A DNA stretch of 64,000 bases from positions 6,696,001 through 6,760,000 of the forward strand of contig NZ_CP030047.1 of NCBI RefSeq assembly GCF_015291625.1, read 5' to 3'. Positions within the stretch are counted from its first letter, which is position 1. Every line of letters starts with the position of its first letter. Shown piece after piece: positions 52,694 through 64,000 of the stretch. Both the position numbers and the translations under genes were made by a program. Source of the DNA: Bradyrhizobium sp. CCBAU 53421. GTDB lineage: Bacteria; Pseudomonadota; Alphaproteobacteria; Rhizobiales; Xanthobacteraceae. The notes below the pieces were generated by a model. That model worked only from the letters and a program-made list of their open reading frames with translations, ran no database searches and was not told the DNA's origin.

Positions 52694-53431
52694 ATGCGAC
52701 CACCCCGCTCCGCCATTGCCATCCGCCATGTGGCGTTCGAGGATCTCGGGCTGCTGGCCCCGATCATGGAGCGTGCCGGCTGGAGCGTGTCGTTCTGCGA
52801 TGCGCCAGTCGACGACCTCGCCGATCGCGCGATTCGCGACGCGGACCTGCTGATCGTGCTGGGCGGGCCGATCGGGGTCTACGAGACCGAGACCTATCCG
52901 TTCCTCTCGACCGAGATCGCGCTGCTGGAACAGCGGCTGCGCCGCGGACTGCCGACGCTCGGCATTTGTCTCGGCGCGCAGTTGATGGCGCAGGCGCTCG
53001 GCGGCCGCGTGTTCCCGGGCAAGGTCAAGGAAATTGGCTGGGGCCCGGTCGAGCTGACGGCGGACGGCAAATCATCCTGCCTGCGCAACCTGCACAGCAA
53101 AGTGCTGCACTGGCACGGCGACACCTTCGACCTGCCCAGGGGTGCGGTACGGCTGGCCGCGAATGCCGATTACGAGAACCAGGCCTTCGCTTATGGCCGC
53201 AACGCGCTGGCGCTGCAATTCCATCTCGAAGCCGATCCGCGCCAGCTCGAGGAATGGTATGTCGGCCACGCCATCGAGCTGTCGGCGGCGAAGGTCTCGA
53301 TATCAGAACTGCGCGCGGCGACGCATGCTCTGGCAAGGCCGGTCGCCGTGCAGGCCGAGCAAGTGTTCGGCGACTGGCTGTTGTCGATCGCACCAGGCGA
53401 CAGCGTGCTTGGTTCCAGCGCAGGCGGCTGA
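52694..53431 (+). CDS. Class I glutamine amidotransferase-like protein
   Basis: 245 residues. The triad is present: Cys in GICLGAQLMAQAL near 96, His in LQFHLEADPRQ near 178, and Glu two residues later. GGPIGVYETE near 57 is the oxyanion region. It resembles GuaA-type or YfeJ-like stand-alone amidotransferases, which release ammonia from glutamine or hydrolyse gamma-glutamyl bonds. It is 85 bases after the ModE-like gene. The partner synthase is not adjacent, so the product is unknown. The ribosome site is weak. Confidence 0.87.
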   Translation: MRPPRSAIAIRHVAFEDLGLLAPIMERAGWSVSFCDAPVDDLADRAIRDADLLIVLGGPIGVYETETYPFLSTEIALLEQRLRRGLPTLGICLGAQLMAQALGGRVFPGKVKEIGWGPVELTADGKSSCLRNLHSKVLHWHGDTFDLPRGAVRLAANADYENQAFAYGRNALALQFHLEADPRQLEEWYVGHAIELSAAKVSISELRAATHALARPVAVQAEQVFGDWLLSIAPGDSVLGSSAGG

Positions 53432-53488
53432 GTCGGCGCGAACAATGCAGCCGAAGGGCGTGCAGTCGCCCTTGAAGCAGTCAGGAGT

Positions 53489-53932
53489 TCATGACCTGTT
53501 GCCCGCACTGACGGCGTAGCTGCCAGGCCCGAAGCTTGCGATCATCGCGAGTGCGCCGAGCAGGCCGAGGTTCTTCAGGAAGTTGATGGTCTGGGCGACG
53601 ACCTGCGCCTCCGGTGCCGCCCAGAAATTGTGGAACATCAGCGTCGCGGCGATGGTGAACAGGAACAGGATGGCGGCGGCGGGGCGCGCGAACAGGCCAA
53701 GCACGAGCGCGATGCCGCAACCAAGCTCGACCGCGGTCGCGCCGGCCGCGAGCACGGCGCCGAGACCATCGGCCGCGCCGAGCCGTGCTGCGGTTGCCGA
53801 GAACGCCATCGCCTTGCCGATGCCGCTGTAGAGGAACAGCGGCGCGACGGCGAGGCGCGCGAATAGCAGCACCAGGGATTCCGGAAGTCGTGCAGCGCCG
53901 GTCTCTGTGGCGGCATAGGTAGAACCGGACAT
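53489..53932 (-). CDS. DoxX family membrane protein
   Basis: 147 residues with four membrane helices. The DoxX pattern LVLLFARLAVAPLFLYSGIGKAMAF is at about 19-43, and ELGCGIALVLGLFARPAAA is near 70. Function in this family is poorly known; some members act with quinone or thiosulfate oxidation. GAAAGGAGACC precedes the ATG at 53932. It lies 25 bases after the MFS transporter gene in the same direction and may be co-transcribed with the gamma-resorcylate genes. Confidence 0.85.
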   Translation of the reverse strand: MSGSTYAATETGAARLPESLVLLFARLAVAPLFLYSGIGKAMAFSATAARLGAADGLGAVLAAGATAVELGCGIALVLGLFARPAAAILFLFTIAATLMFHNFWAAPEAQVVAQTINFLKNLGLLGALAMIASFGPGSYAVSAGNRS

Positions 53933-53957
53933 CAGTGGTCTCCTTTCGTGTCGATCG

Positions 53958-55316
53958 CTATTCCGCGGGTGCCGTGTCGATGGCGGCAGGCTGCACCGCG
54001 GTGGTAAGTCCAAGCGAGCCGATCGCGAACGCGCCGACGATCGCGGCCCCGCCGATCACCCAGAACACGATGTCGGGCCCGCCGGTCACCTGCTGCAGCA
54101 ATCCGATCAGATAGGGCCCGAGGATCGCGCCGACCCGGCCGACACCCAATTCCATGCCGACGCCGCTGGCGCGCAGCAGGGTCTCGTACGAGCCCGCGGT
54201 GAAATTGTTGAGCACGTGCTGTGCGCCGATGATGCAGAAGCCGGCGATGGCGACGATCGCGAGATTGACGCCATGGCCGCTGACGAACACCAGCGCCAGC
54301 ACGGCAATGCCACCGGTCAGCCACCATGTGGCAAGGTAGCGCGGCGTCAGCGACAGATTGCGATCGGCCAGCATCGCGAGCGTCAGCCCGCCGACGAACG
54401 ACATCGCCTGCATCAGCGCGCCGAAACCGAACGATGCCGCAAACGTCTCGCCGCGCTTCTGCATGACCGTCGGGATCCAGCCGGTCAGACCGAAGATCGC
54501 GAACAGGCTGAGGAACGCGGTGATCCAGATCGTCAGCGAGACGCGGCGATAGCGCGGGCTCAGCAGCGCGGCGATCGGATTGGGCACACTGCCGGCATCG
54601 ACCGAGACGAAGCTCGCGTTGCGATAGACCGCGGCGCGCTCCGGACGCAGCCGCCCGAGCAGCGCGCGCAACGCCTCGGTGCGGCGCCGCGCCGCCAGGA
54701 ATTGCGGGCTTTCGGGCAGCACCGCGTGCGCGACGAAGGTCAAAGGGATCGACAGCGCGCCGAGGTAGTAGAGGATCTGCCAGCCGAAATGCGGCGTCAG
54801 ATAGACGCCGACGAGCCCGGCGCAAACGCCGCCGAGCGACCAGCCCAGCGTCACGCCCCATAATGAAAACGCGTTGCTGACCCGGCGCGGCGCCAGCTCG
54901 TTGACGAAGGTCGTGCCCAGCGGCAGCAGCACGCCGAGACCGAGGCCGGTCGCGAAGCGCAACGCGCAGAAACTCCAGAAATCGCTGGCAACCGTTGCGG
55001 TCAGCAACGTGAAGACGTTGACGATCCAGAGCCCTGCCAGAAGCGTGCCGCGCCGGCCGAGCCGGTCGGCGACCGTGCCATGCCCGACCGCACCGAACAG
55101 GAATCCGACGAGGCCCGAGCTCACCAAAAACCCCGCTTGGCTCGGCGACAGCCCCCATGGCTTTGCCAGATAGTGGATGACATAGGCCGGATTGAACGTG
55201 TCATAGCCGTCGAACAGCGTGATGAGCGTGATCAGGATGCCGAGGAGGATGTGCAGCCGGCCGACGGCCGCACTGGACAACTCCTCATGCACGTCGAGTT
55301 CGGGCGAAGTGCTCAC
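53958..55316 (-). CDS. MFS transporter, aromatic acid:H+ symporter (AAHS) type
   Basis: 452 residues with 12 predicted helices. The AAHS signature DGYD is present early (LITLFDGYDTFNPAYVIHYL), and the MFS loop is GHGTVADRLGRRGTLLAG near 79-96. AAHS proteins such as PcaK, BenK and GraK import aromatic acids with protons. It lies 60 bases after the gamma-resorcylate decarboxylase gene in the same direction, so gamma-resorcylate is the likely substrate. It is the obvious partner of that enzyme. Confidence 0.9.
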   Translation of the reverse strand: MSTSPELDVHEELSSAAVGRLHILLGILITLITLFDGYDTFNPAYVIHYLAKPWGLSPSQAGFLVSSGLVGFLFGAVGHGTVADRLGRRGTLLAGLWIVNVFTLLTATVASDFWSFCALRFATGLGLGVLLPLGTTFVNELAPRRVSNAFSLWGVTLGWSLGGVCAGLVGVYLTPHFGWQILYYLGALSIPLTFVAHAVLPESPQFLAARRRTEALRALLGRLRPERAAVYRNASFVSVDAGSVPNPIAALLSPRYRRVSLTIWITAFLSLFAIFGLTGWIPTVMQKRGETFAASFGFGALMQAMSFVGGLTLAMLADRNLSLTPRYLATWWLTGGIAVLALVFVSGHGVNLAIVAIAGFCIIGAQHVLNNFTAGSYETLLRASGVGMELGVGRVGAILGPYLIGLLQQVTGGPDIVFWVIGGAAIVGAFAIGSLGLTTAVQPAAIDTAPAE

Positions 55317-55376
55317 CGTTTCCTCCCTTGCAACAAATGATGCGCCCCTGCTCTGCGGCAGGCTTGATGCGCGCGC

Positions 55377-56351
55377 TTAGAGCCTGAACAGCCTGCGGGC
55401 GTTGTCGCGGCCGATCTTGATGCGATCGCCCTCGGCGATGGTCGCGCTGTCGAACCATTCAGCGGCATGGTCGATGTTCTCGAACGGCCAGTCGGCCGAG
55501 AACAGGATGCGGTCGGCGCCGATCTCGAGCATCGCGTCGATCAGCGCCTGGGTGCGGAAGTTGCCTGACGTGGTGATGTAGAAATTCTCGCGGAAGTAAT
55601 CGGCGATCTTGCGCTTGGCCGGATAGACGTTCTGCGCGCGCATCCACTTGTTGTGGTTGTCGACCCGCCACATCGAGTACGGCAGGCCCTCGCCCATGTG
55701 GCCGAGGATGATCTGCAGCCGCTGATGGGCGTCGAACAGTCCCGAGCCCATCAGGCGCAGCGCGTGCACCGCGGTTTCCTGCCCGAAGGCCCAGGTCGGG
55801 CCCATCAGCCAGCGATGCCCCTCGTAGATCGCGGCGTCCTTCGCCAGCGGGTTGCGCGGATGCAGGTAGAACGGAACGTCGAGCCGCTCGACCTCGGACC
55901 AGAACGGCCAGAACTCCTTCCGGTCGTAGTAGACGGCGCCGTCATGGCCTTCGACCTCGCTGAAGCCGTTGACCAGCGCGCCGCGGAATTTCAGTGCGCT
56001 GACGCAGCGATCGAGCTCGCGCGCGGCGGCTTCCGGATCCTGCATCGGCAGCGCGGCCAGGCCCTGGAAGCGCTCAGGCCGCCGCGCGACCTGCTCGGCC
56101 AGGAAATCATTGGCGCGACGCGACAGCTCCAACGCGCGGTTGCGGTCGGGAATGGCCTGGATCGCCGGCGCGTTGAGCGACAGCAGCATCAGTTCGATGC
56201 CGTGCGCATCCATCTCGGCGAGCCGGCGGTCCTGGATGTCGAGCAGGCGGGCCTTGAGCTCGACCCAATCGTCGGCCGGCGAGAAGCCCGCGCTGTCGCG
56301 AACCGTCTCCTCGATGGCGAAGTGCTCCTCCAGTGCGATCTTTCCCTGCAT
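55377..56351 (-). CDS. Gamma-resorcylate (2,6-dihydroxybenzoate) decarboxylase
   Basis: 324 residues. It is an amidohydrolase-superfamily enzyme very like the Rhizobium gamma-resorcylate decarboxylase. The metal ligands known from that enzyme are in place: E8 and H10 (MQGKIALEEHF), H164 (FYLHPRNP), and D287 (LFSADWPF); H218 (ILGHMGEG) is the catalytic His. It reversibly removes CO2 from gamma-resorcylate to make resorcinol. GAAGGGAGCAGCCG precedes the ATG. It is divergent from a MarR gene and upstream of an aromatic-acid transporter. In described gra/tsd clusters the same three functions are linked. Confidence 0.93.
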   Translation of the reverse strand: MQGKIALEEHFAIEETVRDSAGFSPADDWVELKARLLDIQDRRLAEMDAHGIELMLLSLNAPAIQAIPDRNRALELSRRANDFLAEQVARRPERFQGLAALPMQDPEAAARELDRCVSALKFRGALVNGFSEVEGHDGAVYYDRKEFWPFWSEVERLDVPFYLHPRNPLAKDAAIYEGHRWLMGPTWAFGQETAVHALRLMGSGLFDAHQRLQIILGHMGEGLPYSMWRVDNHNKWMRAQNVYPAKRKIADYFRENFYITTSGNFRTQALIDAMLEIGADRILFSADWPFENIDHAAEWFDSATIAEGDRIKIGRDNARRLFRL

Positions 56352-56411
56352 CGGCTGCTCCCTTCGGGCCCGCGTCCTCGTTTCCGTGTTGACAGAGCAA
56401 AGCATCCGGTT

Positions 56412-56462
56412 CAAATATTTGTCAATGATAAAGTTGCAAATGCAAATGATTGAGATGCAACT
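56412..56462. promoter_or_regulatory. Candidate MarR operators between the decarboxylase and regulator genes
   Basis: The 172-base divergent region holds the perfect palindrome CAAATATTTG (56412-56421), TTGCAAATGCAA (56434-56445, TTGCA-N2-TGCAA) and the outer pair AGTTGCA (56432-56438) with TGCAACT (56456-56462). MarR proteins bind such short palindromes to repress divergent catabolic promoters. Position and symmetry support a role in switching the gamma-resorcylate genes. Confidence 0.55.
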
Positions 56463-56523
56463 GTTGTCGATGCGAAGACCGGCAGCTATTCCGGGCAGAC
56501 ATCTGCTGCCAGGAACTAACTCC

Positions 56524-57075
56524 ATGTACCGATTTTCGAATTCGCTGCCCTACCTGCTCGCCCGGCTCGGCGTGCGGATGGGCGATCTGTTCGTCCGCGT
56601 CATCCGTCACGAGAAATTGACGCTGCCGATGTACCGCGTGCTCGCCGCGCTTTCCGAGCAGGGACACCCGCTGCGGCTCGGCGAGATCGCCGAACTGACT
56701 TCGGCCGACGTCTCGACCTTGTCGCGCATCGTTGCCGAGATGAGCCGCGCCGGCCTTTTGACGCGCAACCGGCCGGAGAACGACCAGCGCAGCCTGCAGG
56801 TCGCGCTGACGCCGAAGGGCGCCGAGCTGGCGTCCAGGCTGATGCCGATCGCCCAACACTATGAGGAAGTCGCAACCGGCGCGATGTCGGCGAAGGAAGC
56901 GGCCGAGCTCAAGCGGGTGCTGGTCGAGCTCTACAAGAATCTCGATCAGCTCGAGCACGAGGTCGAGGCCGGCCTGATCGAGGTGCCCGTAGCGGCGGCA
57001 TCGAAAGAAGCGCGCGAGCCCAAGGTCGACATCAAGGGCAATGCCGGCCGGCGGCGCAAGATACCGAGGAAATAG
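56524..57075 (+). CDS. MarR family transcriptional regulator
   Basis: 183 residues from the ATG at 56524, preceded by CAGGAACTAA. The MarR winged helix is at about 35-100 (YRVLAALSEQGHPLRLGEIA, then ELTSADVSTLSRIVAEMSRA and the wing NRPENDQRSLQVALTPKG). A basic C-terminal tail (GRRRKIPRK) is unusual. MarR proteins release DNA on binding aromatic acids. It is divergent from the gamma-resorcylate decarboxylase gene and 18 bases before the FAD hydroxylase gene, so it probably controls both. Confidence 0.92.
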   Translation: MYRFSNSLPYLLARLGVRMGDLFVRVIRHEKLTLPMYRVLAALSEQGHPLRLGEIAELTSADVSTLSRIVAEMSRAGLLTRNRPENDQRSLQVALTPKGAELASRLMPIAQHYEEVATGAMSAKEAAELKRVLVELYKNLDQLEHEVEAGLIEVPVAAASKEAREPKVDIKGNAGRRRKIPRK

Positions 57076-57093
57076 AACCACCAGGGAGAGGAC

Positions 57094-58293
57094 ATGCGCA
57101 GGGATCCGATCATCATTGCAGGCGGCGGCATCGGCGGACTGGCCGCGGCGGTCGCGCTGGCTCGCAAGGGATTTGAGATCACCGTGCTGGAACGCGCGCC
57201 GCGCTATCAGGAGATCGGCGCCGGCATCCAGCTCGGTCCGAACGCCTTCCATGCCTTCGACCTCCTCGATCTCGGCGACGCCGCCCGCGCGATTGCGGTG
57301 TTCATCGACCAGTTGCGGCTGATGGACGCGATCTCGGCCGAGGAGATCACCAGCATCGATCTGACCAGCTATTTCCGCCAGCGCTTCGGCAATCCCTATG
57401 CGGTAGTGCATCGTGGCGATCTGCACGGCATCTTCCTGCGCGCCTGCGAGGCGCATCCCGGCATCACCTTACGCAGCGATTGCGATGTCGTCGGATATGA
57501 CCAGGACGGCGCGACGGTCGTCGCGCGGCTGAAATCTGGCGAGCGCATCAAAGGTTGCCTACTGATCGGCGCGGACGGACTCAGGTCCCGGATTCGCCAG
57601 CAGATGGTCGATGACGGCCCGCCGCGAATCGCCGGCCACACCACCTATCGATCGGTGATTCCGACCGACCAGATGCCGGAGGATCTGCGCTGGAACGCCG
57701 CCACCCTATGGGCCGGCGCCAAATGCCATCTGGTGCACTACCCGCTGTCGGGCTGGAAGGTCTTCAACCTCGCCATCACCTGCCACAACGATCCCTTGGA
57801 AGCCTTTGCCGCGAAGCCAGTCACCCACGAGGAGGTGCTGGAAGGCTTTCGCGACGTCCATCCCCGCGCCAAGGCGATCATTCACCACGGCAAGGACTGG
57901 AAGGCCTGGGTGACCTGCGATCGCGATCCCGTCGAGCGCTGGGTCGACGGGCGCGCGGTGCTGCTCGGCGACGCCGCGCATCCGATGCTGCAGTACTTTG
58001 CCCAGGGCGCCTGCATGGCGCTGGAGGACGCGGTCTGGCTCGCCGAGCTGCTGGGCGAGATGCCCGATCGCATCGAGCATGCCCTGGAGAACTACCGGCA
58101 GGTTCGGCTGATGCGCACGGCGCGGGTCCAGCTTCAGGCCCGCGAACTCGGCACCCACGTCTATCATCCATCCGGCGTGCACGCGCTACTGCGCAATCAA
58201 CTCATCCGCGAGACCAGCCTCGAGAAATTCTGCGACAAGCTGGCCTGGCTGTACGACTCGCCCTTCACGGAACGGCCGCGCGTCGCCGCCTAG
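57094..58293 (+). CDS. FAD-dependent aromatic hydroxylase (class A flavoprotein monooxygenase)
   Basis: 399 residues. The FAD motif GGGIGGLAAAVALARKGFEI is at about 10-29, the DG motif IGADGLRSRIRQQ near 158, and the GD motif LLGDAAHPMLQYFAQGACMA near 290. Its text strongly resembles 3-hydroxybenzoate 6-hydroxylases. In this cluster it would more likely convert resorcinol to hydroxyquinol, or hydroxylate gamma-resorcylate directly. Described gra/tsd pathways use a two-component resorcinol hydroxylase instead, so this would be an alternative. GGGAGAGGAC precedes the ATG. It follows the MarR gene by 18 bases, and its stop overlaps that of the convergent SMP-30 gene. Confidence 0.88.
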   Translation: MRRDPIIIAGGGIGGLAAAVALARKGFEITVLERAPRYQEIGAGIQLGPNAFHAFDLLDLGDAARAIAVFIDQLRLMDAISAEEITSIDLTSYFRQRFGNPYAVVHRGDLHGIFLRACEAHPGITLRSDCDVVGYDQDGATVVARLKSGERIKGCLLIGADGLRSRIRQQMVDDGPPRIAGHTTYRSVIPTDQMPEDLRWNAATLWAGAKCHLVHYPLSGWKVFNLAITCHNDPLEAFAAKPVTHEEVLEGFRDVHPRAKAIIHHGKDWKAWVTCDRDPVERWVDGRAVLLGDAAHPMLQYFAQGACMALEDAVWLAELLGEMPDRIEHALENYRQVRLMRTARVQLQARELGTHVYHPSGVHALLRNQLIRETSLEKFCDKLAWLYDSPFTERPRVAA

Positions 58294-59189
58294 CCGAGCC
58301 CGCTGATGTCGGCGACCAGCACCGTGCCCGTCACCGATTCCGTGATGTACAGCCGGTCGCGTTTGGCGCCGCCGATCGCGACATTGGTGCAACTTGGCCC
58401 GGCGCAGGACTTGATCCGCGCGATGCACTCGCCGTTCGGTGCGAACACGAAGACGTGGCCGAGCGAGGCGTGCGCGACGAACAATCGCCCGGCCCTGTCC
58501 ATCGTCAGGCCGTCGGGGCCGCTGGGGCCGAACAGCGAGCAGAAGCGGCCCACTTTGGAGACGCTGCCGTCCTTCATGAACGGCGCACGCCAGACCGCAT
58601 TGTCGCGCGTCATGGCGACGAACAGCACGGCCTCGTGCGGATCGAGCACCAGCCCGTTCGGGCTGATGCCGGTGTCGATCAGGCAGTCGAGCGCACCGCT
58701 CGTGCGCAGCCGATAGACCCGGCCGGTCGGATCGTGCAGCCCGGTCTGGCCCTGATCGGTGAAATAGATGTCACCGTTCGTGGCGATGTGCAGGTCGTTG
58801 CAGCCGCGGAACGATTCCGAATTGCGCGAACGCAGCAGCGGCGTGACCTCACCTGACTTGGCATCGAGCTCCATCAGCCCGTGCCGGTAATCGGCGATCA
58901 GGATGCGCCCCATCGGATCGATCTTCAGCCCGTTCGGCCAGCCGTCATATTCGGCGACCTGGGTCCATGACTTGTCCGGCGCGATCCTGAAGATGCGGCC
59001 GAACGGAATGTCGACGATGTAGAGATTGCCGTCAGCGTCGAATGACGGCCCTTCGATGAAGCAGTCGGTCACCGCGCCCGGCCGATTGGCGTCGGCCCAC
59101 TCGCTCGCCACCTTGCGGCGGAACTCGGCCGGCACGGCGGAGAAGGTTTCGGTCGGGATCGGTTTCGGCGGCGTTTCCAGGAACATCAT
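58290..59189 (-). CDS. SMP-30/gluconolactonase family protein
   Basis: 299 residues of a six-bladed propeller: FIEGPSFDADGNLYIVDI near 44, GWPNGLKIDPMGRILIAD near 83, FRGCNDLHIATNGDIYFTD near 127 and ISPNGLVLDPHEAVLF near 175. Metal-site Glu, Asn and Asp are recognisable. It opens a lactone; a role on a lactone from the aromatic pathway is possible. Its stop overlaps the convergent hydroxylase stop by three bases. The ribosome site is weak, and two ATGs occur in a row. It is separated from the globin gene by a repeat. Confidence 0.85.
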   Translation of the reverse strand: MMFLETPPKPIPTETFSAVPAEFRRKVASEWADANRPGAVTDCFIEGPSFDADGNLYIVDIPFGRIFRIAPDKSWTQVAEYDGWPNGLKIDPMGRILIADYRHGLMELDAKSGEVTPLLRSRNSESFRGCNDLHIATNGDIYFTDQGQTGLHDPTGRVYRLRTSGALDCLIDTGISPNGLVLDPHEAVLFVAMTRDNAVWRAPFMKDGSVSKVGRFCSLFGPSGPDGLTMDRAGRLFVAHASLGHVFVFAPNGECIARIKSCAGPSCTNVAIGGAKRDRLYITESVTGTVLVADISGLG

Positions 59190-59240
59190 TTTTTTGGTTC
59201 ACCCGTTGGCGGAACGGGGTGGACCATAGATCGATCTTTT

Positions 59241-59357
59241 CGTCATTGCGAGGAGCCCGCGCCAAAATTGCAAATGCAATTTTGCGCTGAAGCGAACGAA
59301 GCAATCCATCTCTCGGCAAGCGGAGATATGGATTGCTTCGCTTCGCTCGCAATGACG
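59241..59357. repeat. Inverted repeat, CGTCATTGCGAGGAGC family
   Basis: Begins CGTCATTGCGAGGAGC and ends GCTCGCAATGACG. It includes the inner hairpins AAAATTGCAAATGCAATTTT and GCAATCCATCTCTC...GATATGGATTGC. This is a very common dispersed element in Bradyrhizobium and other bacteria. It lies between the SMP-30 and globin genes and may end the nitrate operon transcript. Confidence 0.85.
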
Positions 59358-59422
59358 TGGATAGAGTTTCCGCTCGCAGCGGAACCGACGTCACGCGGCA
59401 AGCGCCGCCGACGACGACCGCC

Positions 59423-59848
59423 CTACTCCGCCGCCTGCGGGCCGCCATAGGCTTCCGAAATCATATAGCCCGACAGCGTGCCGTAGGCCGCCGTCCATGC
59501 AGCGGCGACATCGGGCGTCCAGGCGGCGCCGAGGCCTTTCTCCAAGGTCCAGAGCAATGCGCCGCCGACCACCGGATAGTGCTCGGGCCTCGCGCCATAG
59601 TTGACATGACGCTTGGCGAGTGCACTCGCGGCCGGCAGGATCGTGTCGAGATTGCTCAGCCCGTTGACGACGACGGCGAGCGTCGTCATCAGCTTCTTGC
59701 GCTGCTCCTTCATGTCGGCGGGAAACATTGCCTTTACGGCTGGCGCGACTTCGAACAAGCGATCGTAGAAAATGACCGCAGCTTGCTCCGAGATCGGCGC
59801 GACCTTGCCAAAGCTTTCCTGAACCAGCTTGATTTGGGCCGGATTCAT
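59423..59848 (-). CDS. Single-domain bacterial haemoglobin
   Basis: 141 residues, a globin without a reductase domain. The haem pocket is recognisable: Tyr28 (B10, FYDRLF), Phe42 (CD1), Gln49 (E7) and proximal His81 (F8, KRHVNYGA). The Tyr/Gln pair fits oxygen and NO binding. It lies 115 bases downstream of the nitrate-type ATPase gene in the same direction, so it may be part of that operon. In Bradyrhizobium a related haemoglobin accompanies nitrate assimilation and protects from NO. CCGAGGAGAGTT precedes the ATG. Confidence 0.88.
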   Translation of the reverse strand: MNPAQIKLVQESFGKVAPISEQAAVIFYDRLFEVAPAVKAMFPADMKEQRKKLMTTLAVVVNGLSNLDTILPAASALAKRHVNYGARPEHYPVVGGALLWTLEKGLGAAWTPDVAAAWTAAYGTLSGYMISEAYGGPQAAE

Positions 59849-59963
59849 CTCAACTCTCCTCGGTTCTGAAATGAATTCTGAAATGACTTTCCAAAATGCC
59901 AGCATTGGTAGCCGCATCCGGCGTTTCGGTTCAAAGCGGACGCGTTTGCCGCCGGCGTGATCA

Positions 59964-60758
59964 TCAAGCCGCCTCGACGAAGCTGTGGCGCTCATAGAGG
60001 AATTCGAGCACGCGCTGCCGGCACTTCAGGTAGCCAGGGTTGTTCGCGAGCTCGAGCCGCTTGCGCGGGCGCGCCAAGGGTACCTCGAGCACCTCGCCGA
60101 TCCGCGCGCTCGGGCCGTTGGTCATCATTACGATGCGATCCGACAGCAACACGGCCTCGTCGACGTCGTGGGTAATCATCAGGATGGTGTTGCCGAGCTT
60201 CTGGTGCAGCGCCATCACCGAATCCTGCAGATGCGCCCGGGTCAGCGCGTCGAGCGCGCCGAACGGCTCGTCGAGCAGCAGCACCTTCGGCTCCATCGCG
60301 AGCGCGCGTGCGATGCCGACGCGCTGCTTCATGCCGCCCGAGATTTCGCTCGGCCGCTTGTCCTTGGCATGCGCCATCTGCACCAGGCTGAGATTGTGCA
60401 TCACCCAGGCGTCTCGCTCGACCCTGCTCTTGGTTCTGGCGAACACCTTGTCGACGCCGAGCTTGACGTTCTCGTAGACGGTCAGCCAGGGCAACAGGCT
60501 GTGGTTCTGGAACACGACGGCGCGATCAGGCCCCGGCGAGTTGACCTCGCGGTTCTCCAGCAGCACGCCGCCATTGGTGGCGCCGGTGAGGCCGGCCACG
60601 ATGTTGAGCAGGGTCGACTTGCCGCAGCCGGAATGGCCGATGATCGAGACGTATTCGCCCTTCTCGATCGTCAGGTTGATGTCCTTCAGAACTTCCGTGG
60701 TAGCGTTGCCGCGGGTGAAAATCTTGTCGATGTGATCGAGCTTCAGATAGGCCTGCAT
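59964..60758 (-). CDS. Nitrate/cyanate-type ABC transporter ATP-binding protein (NrtC/NrtD-like)
   Basis: 264 residues. Walker A is GHSGCGKST at 41-49, the signature SEISGGMKQRVGIARALAM is near 137-155, and Walker B VLLLDEPFGALD is near 159-170. The FTRGNATTEVLKDINLTIEKG opening is typical of nitrate/bicarbonate ATPases. It powers the permease encoded 12 bases upstream. The C-terminus RPRKRLELANNPGYLKCRQR matches the NrtD family. It is third in a binding protein-permease-ATPase-globin series. Confidence 0.92.
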   Translation of the reverse strand: MQAYLKLDHIDKIFTRGNATTEVLKDINLTIEKGEYVSIIGHSGCGKSTLLNIVAGLTGATNGGVLLENREVNSPGPDRAVVFQNHSLLPWLTVYENVKLGVDKVFARTKSRVERDAWVMHNLSLVQMAHAKDKRPSEISGGMKQRVGIARALAMEPKVLLLDEPFGALDALTRAHLQDSVMALHQKLGNTILMITHDVDEAVLLSDRIVMMTNGPSARIGEVLEVPLARPRKRLELANNPGYLKCRQRVLEFLYERHSFVEAA

Positions 60759-60770
60759 GACTGGTCCTCC

Positions 60771-61670
60771 TCAGTTCGCCGCCGTGCCGCGGGTCACCAC
60801 TTTGCCGAGGCCCGCAATGAGCCGGTCGAGCACGAAGCCGATGATGCCGACATAGAACAGCGCCAGGATGATTTCGCTGATGTGCGAGGAATTCCACGCA
60901 TCCCAGATGAAGAAACCGATGCCGACACCGCCGATCAGCATTTCCGCGGCCACGATCGCAAGCCAGGACAGGCCGATGCCGATGCGCAGGCCGGTGAACA
61001 TGTAGGGCGCGGCCGCCGGGATCATGATCTTGGTGAAGAACTCCAGCGGATTGAGCTGCACCACGGCAGCGACGTTACGGTAGTCCTGCGGGATGTTGCG
61101 GATGCCGACCGCGGTGTTGATGATGATCGGCCACACCGAGGTGATGAAGATGACGAAGATCGCCGACGGCTGGCCGTCGCGGAATGCGGCGAGCGACAGC
61201 GGCAGCCAGGCCAGCGGCGGAATCGTCCGCAGCACCTGGAACAGCGGATCGAGCCCGCGCATCGCCCAGACCGATTGCCCCACCAGCGTGCCGAGCGCGA
61301 TGCCCGCGATCGCCGCCAGCGAGTAGCCGTAGGCGACGCGCTGGAGGCTGGCGGAAAGATGCCAGAACAGGCCCTTGTCGATGCCGCCATGGTCGAAGAA
61401 CGGATCGAGGATCAGCTCCCTGGTGTCCTTGAACACTTTTGACGGCGGCGGCAGGCTGGAGCCGGCTCGCCGGCAGATCAGCTCCCACACCACCAGTAGC
61501 AGCGCGACCACGAACAGTGGCGGCACCACGCGCACCGCGGTCTCCTTCGCAATCCTCGCGTAGGTCTCTGCGCGCGGCGGGCGCTTCGGCGTCATGGTCA
61601 CGACCGGCGCGGGGGCGGTCGGCGGAATCGCCACCGCCGACACTTCGGTCTTCATGGCAGGCATCGACAT
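60771..61670 (-). CDS. Nitrate-type ABC transporter permease (NrtB-like)
   Basis: 299 residues. A hydrophilic N-terminus of about 50 residues is followed by six membrane segments. Recognisable text is LARDQVRTIPP-type loop as VLRTIPPLAWLPLSLAAFRD near 146-165 and the EAA-like NVAAVVQLNPLEFFTKIMIP near 198-217. GLSWLAIVAAEMLIGGVGIG near 233 is a hallmark of NrtB and related permeases. It lies 56 bases after the binding-protein gene and before the ATPase gene. Confidence 0.92.
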   Translation of the reverse strand: MSMPAMKTEVSAVAIPPTAPAPVVTMTPKRPPRAETYARIAKETAVRVVPPLFVVALLLVVWELICRRAGSSLPPPSKVFKDTRELILDPFFDHGGIDKGLFWHLSASLQRVAYGYSLAAIAGIALGTLVGQSVWAMRGLDPLFQVLRTIPPLAWLPLSLAAFRDGQPSAIFVIFITSVWPIIINTAVGIRNIPQDYRNVAAVVQLNPLEFFTKIMIPAAAPYMFTGLRIGIGLSWLAIVAAEMLIGGVGIGFFIWDAWNSSHISEIILALFYVGIIGFVLDRLIAGLGKVVTRGTAAN

Positions 61671-61726
61671 TGACAGATGATCTCCGTGAAAAAGGGAGAG
61701 CCGCGCGCGAGGCGCAGCTCCTCAAA

Positions 61727-63043
61727 TCAGACGTCGACGCGCTTGATGGACAGCGACTTCAGGTAGGCGGCGGGATCGGCGGGATCGAACACCTTGCCGT
61801 CGAAGAAGGTCTCCTTGCCGCGCGAGGTCGAGGTCGGGATCTCCGATGCCGGCACGCCGAGCTCCTTGGCGGCCTCCTTCCAGAGATCCTCGCGGTTGAC
61901 CTTGGCGATCAGCGCCTTGGTGTCGAAGCCGGCCTCATACTTGCCCCAGCGGATGTCCTCGGTCAGGAACCAGAGGTCGTGGCTCTGATAGGGATAGGAG
62001 GCGTTGTCGCTCCAGAACCGCATCTGCTGCGGCGAGTTCTCGACCACGCGGCCGGTGCCGTAGTCGAACTTGCCCTTCATGCGATCGCTGATGTCTTCCA
62101 CCGGGCAGTTGATCCACTGCCGCTTGGCGCAGATCGCCGCGGTCTCCTCGCGATTCTCCACCTTCTCGCACCACTGCTGGGCTTCCATCACGGCCATCAG
62201 CAGCGCCTTCGCAGCCTTCGGGTTCTTGTCGACCCAGGCAGCGCGCAGACCGAAGGACTTCTCCGGATGCTTGTCCCAGAGCTCGCCCGTCGTGATCGCG
62301 GTGTAGCCGATCTCCTTATGGATCAGCTGCAGATTCCACGGCTCGCAGACGCAGAAGCAATCCATCGTGCCGACCTTCATATTGGCCACCATCTGCGGCG
62401 GCGGCACCACGATGGTCTCGATGTCCTTGTCGGGATCGATGCCGCCGGCGGCGAGCCAGTAGCGGATCCACAGATCGTGCGTGCCGCCGGGGAAAGTCAT
62501 CGCGGCCTTCACCGCCTTGCCGGAGGCCTTCTTCTTCTCCAGCGCCGCCTTGAACGGCCCAGTGTCGATGCCGACCTTGAGATCGGCATATTCCTTGGCG
62601 ACCGAGATGCACTGACCGTTCAGATTGAGCCGCGCCATGATGTACATCGGCGTCGGCTGATTGTTCTGCGTCACCTTGCCGGCCGAGATCAGGTACGGCA
62701 TCGGGGTCAGGATGTGCGCGCCGTCGATGCCGTTGCCCTCGGAGCCGAGCACGAGATTGTCGCGCGTGGTGCCCCACGAGGCCTGCTTCTGCACCTCGAC
62801 GTCGGGCATGCCGTACTTGGCGAAGATGCCCTTCTCCTTGGCGACGAACAGCGGCGAGGCGTCGGTGAGCGCGATGAAGCCGAGCTTGGCGCCCTTCACT
62901 TCCGGGCCCCCGCCCTGCGCGAATGCACCGGCGGGGAAGTTGAGCCTGGCCGCTGCGAGCAGCGCGGCGGCGCCGCCGGTTGCCTTCAAGAGCCGGCGAC
63001 GGCTGATCGCGCGGCCCGGGGGCTTGATGGTGGGCTTGGTCAT
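61727..63043 (-). CDS. Nitrate/bicarbonate-type ABC transporter substrate-binding protein (NrtA/CmpA-like)
   Basis: 438 residues. A Tat signal with SRRRLLKATGG at about 15-25 and an Ala-rich core ends near residue 45. The mature part has the NrtA/CmpA pattern: GAKLGFIALTDASPLFVAKE, GAHILTPMPYLISAG, MVANMKVGTMDCFCVCEPWN and CAKRQWINCP. NrtA-type proteins bind nitrate or nitrite; CmpA binds bicarbonate, and I cannot separate these by eye. The globin downstream favours nitrate. AAAGGACGACC precedes the ATG at 63043. The long region upstream has a structured leader and a sigma-54-like promoter. Confidence 0.93.
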   Translation of the reverse strand: MTKPTIKPPGRAISRRRLLKATGGAAALLAAARLNFPAGAFAQGGGPEVKGAKLGFIALTDASPLFVAKEKGIFAKYGMPDVEVQKQASWGTTRDNLVLGSEGNGIDGAHILTPMPYLISAGKVTQNNQPTPMYIMARLNLNGQCISVAKEYADLKVGIDTGPFKAALEKKKASGKAVKAAMTFPGGTHDLWIRYWLAAGGIDPDKDIETIVVPPPQMVANMKVGTMDCFCVCEPWNLQLIHKEIGYTAITTGELWDKHPEKSFGLRAAWVDKNPKAAKALLMAVMEAQQWCEKVENREETAAICAKRQWINCPVEDISDRMKGKFDYGTGRVVENSPQQMRFWSDNASYPYQSHDLWFLTEDIRWGKYEAGFDTKALIAKVNREDLWKEAAKELGVPASEIPTSTSRGKETFFDGKVFDPADPAAYLKSLSIKRVDV

Positions 63044-63138
63044 CGGTCGTCCTTTGCGTCGTTGCGTTGCGGTGATGCGGCTTTGCGTCGAGCGCCCTCC
63101 TTCGGGTGGCGACGCGCGCAGGGCGCAAATGGGCATGC

Positions 63139-63155
63139 ACCGGGGAGGCCCCGGT
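63139..63155 (-). promoter_or_regulatory. Leader hairpin upstream of the nitrate transporter operon
   Basis: ACCGGGG and CCCCGGT pair over seven bases with a three-base loop, about 100 bases before the binding-protein ATG. It lies downstream of the sigma-54-like promoter, so it would be in the mRNA leader. Nitrate assimilation operons are often controlled by the antiterminator NasT through leader RNA. Whether this leader is such a target is not known. Confidence 0.4.
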
Positions 63156-63222
63156 CTGGCGGCGTCAGAAATCCGATGGGGTGGCCTCGAGGGACGGCTT
63201 CAATGGCGTCGGGGCTTGACTA

Positions 63223-63238
63223 TTCAAGCCTTGTGCCA
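63223..63238 (-). promoter_or_regulatory. Sigma-54-like promoter upstream of the nitrate transporter operon
   Basis: On the minus strand TGGCACAAGGCTTGAA has a perfect -24 element TGGCAC, five bases, then TTGA in place of TTGC at -12. It lies about 180 bases upstream of the binding-protein start, and nitrogen genes commonly use sigma-54 with NtrC. The lost C at -12 makes it less than certain. Confidence 0.45.
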
Positions 63239-63290
63239 AGCTACCGCACCGCAAAAATCGATTTTATTGCAAAGTCTTGCGCAACATGTC

Positions 63291-63360
63291 GCAGCGCGCG
63301 TGGAGCTTGCGCGCGCTGCCAAAAATTGCGATTCGCTTAAATCTTGTGCGCCGCACAAGA
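63291..63360 (-). terminator. Two hairpins after the hydroxyquinol dioxygenase gene
   Basis: TCTTGTGC pairs with GCACAAGA (63342-63360), followed on the minus strand by TTTAAG, about 30 bases past the dioxygenase stop. A second GC-rich hairpin, GCAGCGCGCG with CGCGCGCTGC, is at 63291-63319. The first resembles a weak intrinsic terminator. They separate the dioxygenase transcript from the nitrate operon in the 345-base gap 63044-63388. Confidence 0.5.
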
Positions 63361-63388
63361 ATTGGGCAAGCGCCTTCGATGATCGCGA

Positions 63389-64000
63389 TCAGGCGTCTTC
63401 GGCAACCTTGGTGCCGAGCGGCGCCGGCGCCATTCCGCCACCGGGCTTCACGCGGAATTCGTAGGTCATCAGGCTCCACGGACCATCCGACCGCGCGCCA
63501 TCCGGCATCACAGCATCGGTGCGCCGCTCGACCTTGGCGATCAGCTCGTCCTTCACGCCGAACACGACGTCGGAATCGATGTACTCGTCGCCTTCGACGA
63601 ACACATGCGTGATCAGCGGCTCATGGCCCTTGGCGTTGACCAGGAAGTGCACATGCGCCGGCCGCATCGGATGCCGGTTGGTCTGCGTGATCATCTGCCC
63701 GACCGGGCCGTCGGTCGGGATCGGATAGCTGCAAGGCACGATAGTGCGGAAGAAGAAGCGGCCGTCGGCATCGGTGATGAAGCGCGCCCGCGACGACGGG
63801 CCTTCGCTGGCATAGCTCGGCTTCTGCGAGTCGTAGAACCCGTCGTCGTCCGCGTGCCAGACATCGACCGGCACATTGGCCAGCGGCTTGCCGTCGAGAT
63901 CGGTGACGCGGCTTTGCACGAACATGCGCTCGCCGGGCAGGCTCGCCGAGATGTCGGTGCCGTGCGGCGTCACCTTGTGCTCGCCGACATAGAACGGGCC
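63389..64000 (-). CDS. Hydroxyquinol 1,2-dioxygenase (intradiol), C-terminal 203 residues; N-terminus outside the window
   Basis: Partial: the frame enters at base 64000 with GPFYVGEHKVTPHGTDIS. Intradiol features are present: a ligand Tyr in GPFYVGE, WHADDDGFYDSQ, a second Tyr in PCSYPIPTDGPVGQM and two ligand His in RPAHVHFLV. GFYDSQ, SYPIPTDGPVGQM and THVFVEGDEYIDSDVVFGVKD closely match hydroxyquinol 1,2-dioxygenases rather than catechol enzymes. It cleaves hydroxyquinol to maleylacetate with non-haem Fe(III). It would complete the route from gamma-resorcylate. A maleylacetate reductase gene is expected beyond the right edge. Confidence 0.9.
   Translation of the reverse strand, partial: GPFYVGEHKVTPHGTDISASLPGERMFVQSRVTDLDGKPLANVPVDVWHADDDGFYDSQKPSYASEGPSSRARFITDADGRFFFRTIVPCSYPIPTDGPVGQMITQTNRHPMRPAHVHFLVNAKGHEPLITHVFVEGDEYIDSDVVFGVKDELIAKVERRTDAVMPDGARSDGPWSLMTYEFRVKPGGGMAPAPLGTKVAEDA

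What the first reader, a model, noticed from the sequence alone, without database searches (positions are those of the whole stretch)
53958..64000. Gamma-resorcylate pathway with a single-component FAD hydroxylase and a distant hydroxyquinol dioxygenase
The decarboxylase matches the Rhizobium enzyme at E8, H10, H164, H218 and D287. Beside it are an AAHS transporter, a MarR regulator and a class A flavin hydroxylase; a hydroxyquinol 1,2-dioxygenase follows 5 kb away. Known gra/tsd clusters use a two-component resorcinol hydroxylase. Here the hydroxylase looks like 3-hydroxybenzoate 6-hydroxylase, which suggests a replaced or different hydroxylation step, possibly directly on gamma-resorcylate. 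The unrelated nitrate operon sits in the middle.
Basis: partly seen in the sequence, partly recalled or inferred. Interest (0 to 1): 0.7.

Follow-up and report, generated by a model that had tools for sequence, protein, structure and literature searches.

The report
Resorcylate cluster with swapped hydroxylase
In Bradyrhizobium soil bacteria, a known type of gene cluster for breaking down the aromatic acid gamma-resorcylate seems to have exchanged its usual two-part hydroxylase for a one-part enzyme related to that of a different (3-hydroxybenzoate) pathway; this looks like a modest new variant of a known pathway, still to be tested at the bench.

Summary
The genes are real. The window (Bradyrhizobium) holds a gamma-resorcylate decarboxylase (GRDC), an aromatic acid transporter, a MarR regulator and a one-component FAD hydroxylase of the 3-hydroxybenzoate 6-hydroxylase (3HB6H) family. 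They form one unit, window 53425-58294, absent as a block in relative G252. In the 80 GRDC loci kept, the hydroxylase slot holds the two-component GraA type (47), the window type (18), an MhpA-like enzyme (3) or none of these (12), never two. In 117 Bradyrhizobium genomes, 16 of 16 window-type hydroxylases lie beside GRDC; 0 of 33 other 3HB6H-like ones do. The window type is one clade; a 3HB6H beside gentisate 1,2-dioxygenase exists elsewhere in the genome. An operator-like site recurs in clusters with other hydroxylases. Relatives L030, L032-L034 and L149 keep maleylacetate reductase and a second dioxygenase in the unit; the window strain lacks both. The "distant" dioxygenase is genus-wide (116 of 117), not part of the unit. 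Best reading: GRDC makes resorcinol and the 3HB6H-like enzyme makes hydroxyquinol from it. Substrate untested; hydroxylation before decarboxylation is not excluded.

The parts
53425..58294 (.). whole unit: present here, absent as a block in G252 (L158), which matches the window up to 53424 and again from 58295 with 15 bp between
   Evidence: blastn of window against L157 and L158
53489..53932 (-). DoxX-family membrane protein
   Evidence: Pfam PF07681 54.5 bits; found in 18 of 18 window-type loci
53958..55316 (-). aromatic acid transporter of the MFS (AAHS-like)
   Evidence: TIGR00895 264 bits, under its cut-off of 418.55; PF07690
55377..56351 (-). gamma-resorcylate decarboxylase (GRDC, GraF/TsdA type)
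   Evidence: PDB 3s4t/4qro and 2dvt; active-site residues; 73-74% to plasmid genes annotated tsdA
56434..56445 (.). operator-like site TTGCAAATGCAA between MarR and GRDC
56524..57075 (+). MarR-family regulator
   Evidence: PF01047; start
57094..58293 (+). one-component class A FAD hydroxylase of the 3HB6H family, proposed resorcinol 4-hydroxylase; starts 18 bases after MarR
   Evidence: NF006021 548 bits; tree; linkage
58290..59189 (-). SMP-30/gluconolactonase-like gene; flanking backbone, not part of the unit
   Evidence: PF08450; present without the unit in L157 and L158
63389..64000 (-). hydroxyquinol 1,2-dioxygenase (continues to 64303); flanking backbone, possible ring-cleavage partner
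   Evidence: PDB 1tmx; matched in 116 of 117 genus genomes

Best explanation
[quoted passage not shown] Shown by comparison: the unit, its conservation, the mutual exclusion of hydroxylase types, the shared regulator and operator-like site, and a separate 3HB6H beside gentisate dioxygenase. Inferred: the transporter imports gamma-resorcylate; GRDC gives resorcinol and CO2; the hydroxylase, using NADH, adds a hydroxyl para to one OH to give hydroxyquinol; [quoted passage not shown] The chemistry fits: 3HB6H hydroxylates para to a phenol OH with a carboxylate meta to it; in resorcinol the second OH sits where that carboxylate sits.
For: Slot and exclusion: of 80 loci, 47 GraA, 18 window type, 3 MhpA-like, 12 none, 0 with two. 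Linkage: 16 of 16 window-type genes lie 728-771 bp from GRDC, 0 of 33 others of 65-68% identity lie beside it. Units with reductase and second dioxygenase: L030, L032, L033, L034 and L149. Window-type hydroxylases are one side of a branch, 19 rows, support 100/98. The own genome keeps another NF006021 enzyme (531 bits) with gentisate 1,2-dioxygenase (TIGR02272, 608 bits) and an isomerase-like gene. Residues matching His213, Tyr217, Tyr105 and Gln301 of the Rhodococcus enzyme are kept in 19 of 19. Operator-like site within one mismatch upstream of MarR in 23 of 31 non-redundant loci not of the window type, shuffles mean 0.21, most 2.
Against: No substrate evidence at all. The same four residues are kept in 22 of 22 of the comparison group too, so they do not show a change of substrate; the 7 strict clade-specific changes could not be placed in the pocket because no coordinates were available. 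NF006021 names it 3-hydroxybenzoate 6-monooxygenase above its cut-off. Only 4 of 18 window-type loci hold both maleylacetate reductase and a dioxygenase within 6 kb, against 32 of 47 of the GraA type, so the link to hydroxyquinol is weaker here. Five rows in the same GRDC clade (L046 and L156 appear to be one record) have no recognised hydroxylase. The 80-locus set and the 117-genome set overlap (for example L029 and G315 give the same coordinates), so they are not independent.
Confidence: 0.72

Rival explanations
1. Hydroxylate first: the enzyme acts on gamma-resorcylate itself, para to one OH, giving 2,3,6-trihydroxybenzoate, which GRDC then decarboxylates to hydroxyquinol. The product is the same; only the order differs.
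For: The enzyme comes from a family whose known substrate is a benzoate, and the catalytic residues of that family are kept.
Against: In 3-hydroxybenzoate the carboxylate is meta to the phenol OH; in 2,6-dihydroxybenzoate it is ortho, so it would sit elsewhere in the pocket (inference). In canonical clusters the enzyme in this slot is a resorcinol hydroxylase (recalled; Yoshida 2007, seen here only as a reference entry).
Confidence: 0.12
2. The enzyme is an ordinary 3-hydroxybenzoate 6-hydroxylase that happens to sit beside GRDC; its gentisate is used by the gentisate cluster elsewhere.
For: NF006021 above cut-off; catalytic residues kept.
Against: 0 of 33 other family members of the genus panel are beside GRDC and 16 of 16 of this type are; the genome already has one with gentisate dioxygenase; exclusion with GraA.
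Confidence: 0.1
3. The enzyme hydroxylates another phenol or phenolic acid brought in by the same transporter, and resorcinol is handled by some other hydroxylase, such as the FAD monooxygenase in the reductase-dioxygenase group at 6.65 Mb.
For: That group (L124) holds a maleylacetate-reductase-like gene, a dioxygenase 73% identical to the window's and a FAD monooxygenase.
Against: No operator-like site within two mismatches in that stretch; a similar second dioxygenase (72-74% to the window's) occurs in genomes without GRDC, such as G252.
Confidence: 0.06

Closest known systems
gra cluster of Rhizobium sp. MTP-10005 (recalled) and its kin, here R. johnstonii 3841 pRL12 as annotated
   Same: GRDC, MarR regulator, aromatic acid transporter, and in some relatives of the window maleylacetate reductase and intradiol dioxygenase; operator-like site shared by most clusters of this kind
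   Different: flavin reductase plus flavin-dependent monooxygenase there; a one-component FAD hydroxylase directly after MarR here; reductase and dioxygenase absent from the unit in this strain
3-hydroxybenzoate 6-hydroxylase (NF006021; Rhodococcus jostii 4bjy)
   Same: family profile, residues of the active site
   Different: own clade; beside GRDC, with no gentisate dioxygenase found in the 18 window-type loci of about 21 kb
rol operon of Corynebacterium glutamicum (resorcinol route)
   Same: resorcinol degraded through 1,2,4-trihydroxybenzene, under a repressor (passages of PMC7764795)
   Different: different regulator, RolR; that its hydroxylase is one-component and that it lacks GRDC are recalled, not tested

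Membership tests
gra/tsd gamma-resorcylate cluster | gamma-resorcylate decarboxylase | tested here: met
   (by sequence)
gra/tsd gamma-resorcylate cluster | two-component resorcinol hydroxylase (GraA/GraD) | tested here: not met
   absent beside GRDC in the window; best genome match to GraA 35%
gra/tsd gamma-resorcylate cluster | maleylacetate reductase and hydroxyquinol dioxygenase in the cluster | tested here: not met
   absent in the window unit (25 bases between transporter and DoxX); present in L030, L032, L033, L034 and L149
gra/tsd gamma-resorcylate cluster | MarR regulator beside GRDC with the shared operator-like site (a feature found here, not from the literature) | tested here: met
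3-hydroxybenzoate 6-hydroxylase | family profile above curated cut-off | tested here: met
   548 against 459 bits
3-hydroxybenzoate 6-hydroxylase | active-site His and Tyr of the Rhodococcus enzyme | tested here: met
   residues named in passages of PMC5472690
3-hydroxybenzoate 6-hydroxylase | turns 3-hydroxybenzoate into gentisate | not testable with these tools
   needs enzyme assay
resorcinol hydroxylase | turns resorcinol into hydroxyquinol | not testable with these tools
   needs enzyme assay

The most novel reading that the evidence does not exclude
A hydroxylate-first route: a benzoate hydroxylase turns gamma-resorcylate into 2,3,6-trihydroxybenzoate and the decarboxylase then makes hydroxyquinol from it, so resorcinol is never formed and the decarboxylase has a changed natural substrate.
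Probability: 0.12. Interest if true: 0.55.

Novelty: new variant of a known kind. Interest (0 to 1): 0.42.

Why it matters
If true, one regulated slot in a known pathway has been filled by at least three unrelated or only distantly related hydroxylases (two-component GraA/GraD, 3HB6H-like, MhpA-like). That gives a natural series for asking how class A hydroxylases move from benzoates to simple phenols, and it warns that the NCBIfam model NF006021, which names the window enzyme 3-hydroxybenzoate 6-monooxygenase, may misname this clade.

Tried and rejected
The dioxygenase 5 kb away as a cluster member: rejected, genus-wide gene. A GraA homologue elsewhere serving the pathway: best match 35%, its best profile is the steroid-pathway HsaA model, under cut-off, and no operator-like site within one mismatch lies near it. 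The second exact copy of the operator-like site (window 59268, before the SMP-30 gene): looked like a second regulated gene, but it lies in a stretch that looks by eye like a dispersed repeat, and no copy within one mismatch stands before that gene in the 10 other loci compared, L029-L036, L157 and L158; judged chance. Within one mismatch the genome holds 23 copies against 8 for the reversed control pattern, so single-mismatch copies in the genome were given no weight. Clade-specific residues: 25 loose and 7 strict positions; 6 of the 7 strict ones fall between residues 175 and 280, but no coordinates were laid in the Python box, so no pocket claim is made. A structure search of the model could not be run. 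The ferredoxin-like genes in L046 were judged by eye only, because the Pfam call that held them failed and was not repeated. Maleylacetate reductase has no model of its own in the NCBIfam hits; the name rests on similarity to the Rhizobium gene of the canonical cluster, annotated so.

Literature: searches of open-licence papers (two found no paper; one listed 25 of 72 and 55 listed 15 of 357) listed none whose title or opening abstract pairs a 3HB6H-like enzyme with gamma-resorcylate decarboxylase. Passages only were seen of PMC5472690, PMC6043778, PMC7764795, PMC10811679, PMC5125639, PMC3915288 and PMC3546652; the other papers as listings. Four papers asked for by id (PMC3764827, PMC1855702, PMC1636210, PMC5988983: Montersino 2013, Yoshida 2007, Huang 2006, Sheng 2018) are not held.
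Full report
What is there. The window is from a genome of 9,259,049 bases whose nearest named relatives by GRDC are Bradyrhizobium. GRDC is a clear gamma-resorcylate decarboxylase by sequence: 540.7 and 538 bits to the solved enzymes 3s4t/4qro and 2dvt, against 275 bits for the next decarboxylases, with E8, H10, H164, H218 and D287 in place. The hydroxylase scores 548 bits to NF006021, 3-hydroxybenzoate 6-monooxygenase, cut-off 459. It starts 18 bases after MarR, so the two are probably one transcript, divergent from GRDC, transporter and DoxX.

The unit and its edges. Its DNA matches the window up to 53424 and again from 58295, with 15 bp between. So DoxX, transporter, GRDC, MarR and hydroxylase are one block of about 4.9 kb. 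G258, also without GRDC, has the same flanks, but its gap also takes in the glutamine amidotransferase gene. Whether this is gain or loss is not decided.

The distant dioxygenase. It is a hydroxyquinol 1,2-dioxygenase by its nearest solved relatives. A match of 76% identity or more is in 116 of 117 genomes of the genus; the one without is 75% complete. GRDC is in 36 of 117. In G252 and G258 the dioxygenase sits with the ABC transporter genes and the beta-lactamase-like gene, without GRDC. It may serve the pathway but is not part of the unit.

Slot comparison. I classified the hydroxylase within 5 kb of GRDC in the 80 loci kept by the species-collection scan (225 relatives were found, 80 kept). 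GraA type 47, window type 18, MhpA-like 3, none of these 12, two types 0. Of the 12, five are cut by a contig end close to GRDC (L051, L052, L085, L087, L105). The window type is in 17 Bradyrhizobium loci and one Rhizobium (L050). Public annotation shows the canonical arrangement in R. johnstonii 3841: MarR, flavin reductase, flavin-dependent monooxygenase, tsdA, maleylacetate reductase, intradiol dioxygenase. Bradyrhizobium itself has both kinds: of the 20 GRDC copies at 70-74% identity I read seven; six have GraD-GraA (L150-L155) and one, L148, has an MhpA-like enzyme. G347 carries that one and also a window-type unit with reductase and dioxygenase, L149.

Linkage in the genus. Of 37 GRDC copies in 36 genomes, 17 are at least 86% identical to the window's and 16 of those have the window-type hydroxylase; the exception is G359. 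All 16 window-type hydroxylases (77% or more) lie 728-771 bp from GRDC; none of the 33 others (65-68%) lies beside GRDC. In that search only part of the candidates in each genome was scored, for example 16 of 50 in the window's own. The genus set and the 80 loci overlap: L029 and G315, for one, give the same coordinates.

Tree. With 42 rows, the 19 GRDC-linked hydroxylases, L050 included, form one side of a branch with support 100/98; the 22 comparison rows and the outgroup lie on the other side. Of the 22 comparison rows, 15 have a gentisate-dioxygenase or isomerase match in the stretch read (12 of them the dioxygenase); in 7 (L129, L130, L136, L137, L139, L140, L143) neither was found in stretches of about 3 to 4 kb, so for these the label is by family only. 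L050 is a long row and its place is less sure.

Own paralogue. At 8.925 Mb lies a 66% identical enzyme (531 bits to NF006021) with gentisate 1,2-dioxygenase (608 bits, cut-off 442) and an isomerase-like gene. The 3-hydroxybenzoate route therefore seems to have its own enzyme.

Lower pathway. A maleylacetate-reductase-like gene and a second dioxygenase stand between transporter and DoxX in L030, L032, L033 and L034 (reductase 88-94% to L030's in the other three); L037 keeps only the dioxygenase. In the window 25 bases separate transporter and DoxX, so both are absent. The genome has reductase candidates at 6,656,448-6,657,491 (55% to the Rhizobium gene), beside a dioxygenase 73% identical to the window's, and at 2,357,943 (53%). 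The first is about 92 kb from the unit.

Regulation. TTGCAAATGCAA stands at 56434-56445 between MarR and GRDC. Among 65 loci not of the window type (GraA, MhpA-like or none) I found MarR in 52 and reduced these to 31 non-redundant upstream regions; 23 of 31 hold the site within one mismatch, dinucleotide shuffles mean 0.21 and at most 2. The pattern was chosen after seeing some of these regions; leaving out L054, L081, L148 and L058 (taken as standing for its kin L059) it is 19 of 27. In the whole genome there are two exact copies; the second is judged chance. The stretches with the reductase candidate at 6.656 Mb (L124) and the gentisate cluster (L109) have none within two mismatches. So this unit seems to share its control with the canonical gra clusters.

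How it probably works. Import of gamma-resorcylate, decarboxylation to resorcinol, para-hydroxylation to hydroxyquinol, ring cleavage and reduction by enzymes outside the unit. Only the gene-level facts are shown; each reaction is inference from family and context. A Martelella 3HB6H is reported inactive on salicylate and 4-hydroxybenzoate (passage of PMC6043778, data not shown there), so the family can be narrow; on the other hand a single change let a 3-hydroxybenzoate hydroxylase of another kind (MobA) act also on phenol (passage of PMC3915288). His213 and Tyr217 of the Rhodococcus enzyme are named as active-site residues in PMC5472690 (passages); the matching residues are kept in all 19 rows, and in all 22 comparison rows.

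Verdict. A real, conserved variant of a known catabolic cluster, with a hydroxylase from another family in place of the usual one. Moderately interesting; the substrate is the open question.

Noticed in passing
L046:6750-9307 (and L156, apparently the same record): A GRDC 86% identical to the window's, with the same kind of MarR, has beside it what looks by eye like a Rieske ferredoxin, a ferredoxin reductase and a 231-residue protein; a fourth possible filling of the slot.
   Followed up: partly
L148:3620-5683, L081:8408-9943: MhpA-like FAD hydroxylase (NF004829, 535 bits for L081) between MarR and GRDC in Roseomonas loci and in a second gra cluster of Bradyrhizobium genome G347.
   Followed up: yes
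window 59268-59279: Second exact copy of the operator-like site, about 80 bases before the SMP-30 gene, in a repeat-like stretch; not found at that place in the 10 loci compared.
   Followed up: yes
L124:4275-9566 (G000 about 6.652-6.658 Mb): Group of a maleylacetate-reductase-like gene, a hydroxyquinol-type dioxygenase, a FAD monooxygenase of roughly 600 residues and, by eye, an ABC-type binding protein; a separate route of unknown entry substrate.
   Followed up: partly
Its own upstream pathway is unknown.
   Followed up: partly
L047, L048, L049: GRDC with MarR, transporter or DoxX nearby but no recognised hydroxylase within 5 kb.
   Followed up: no
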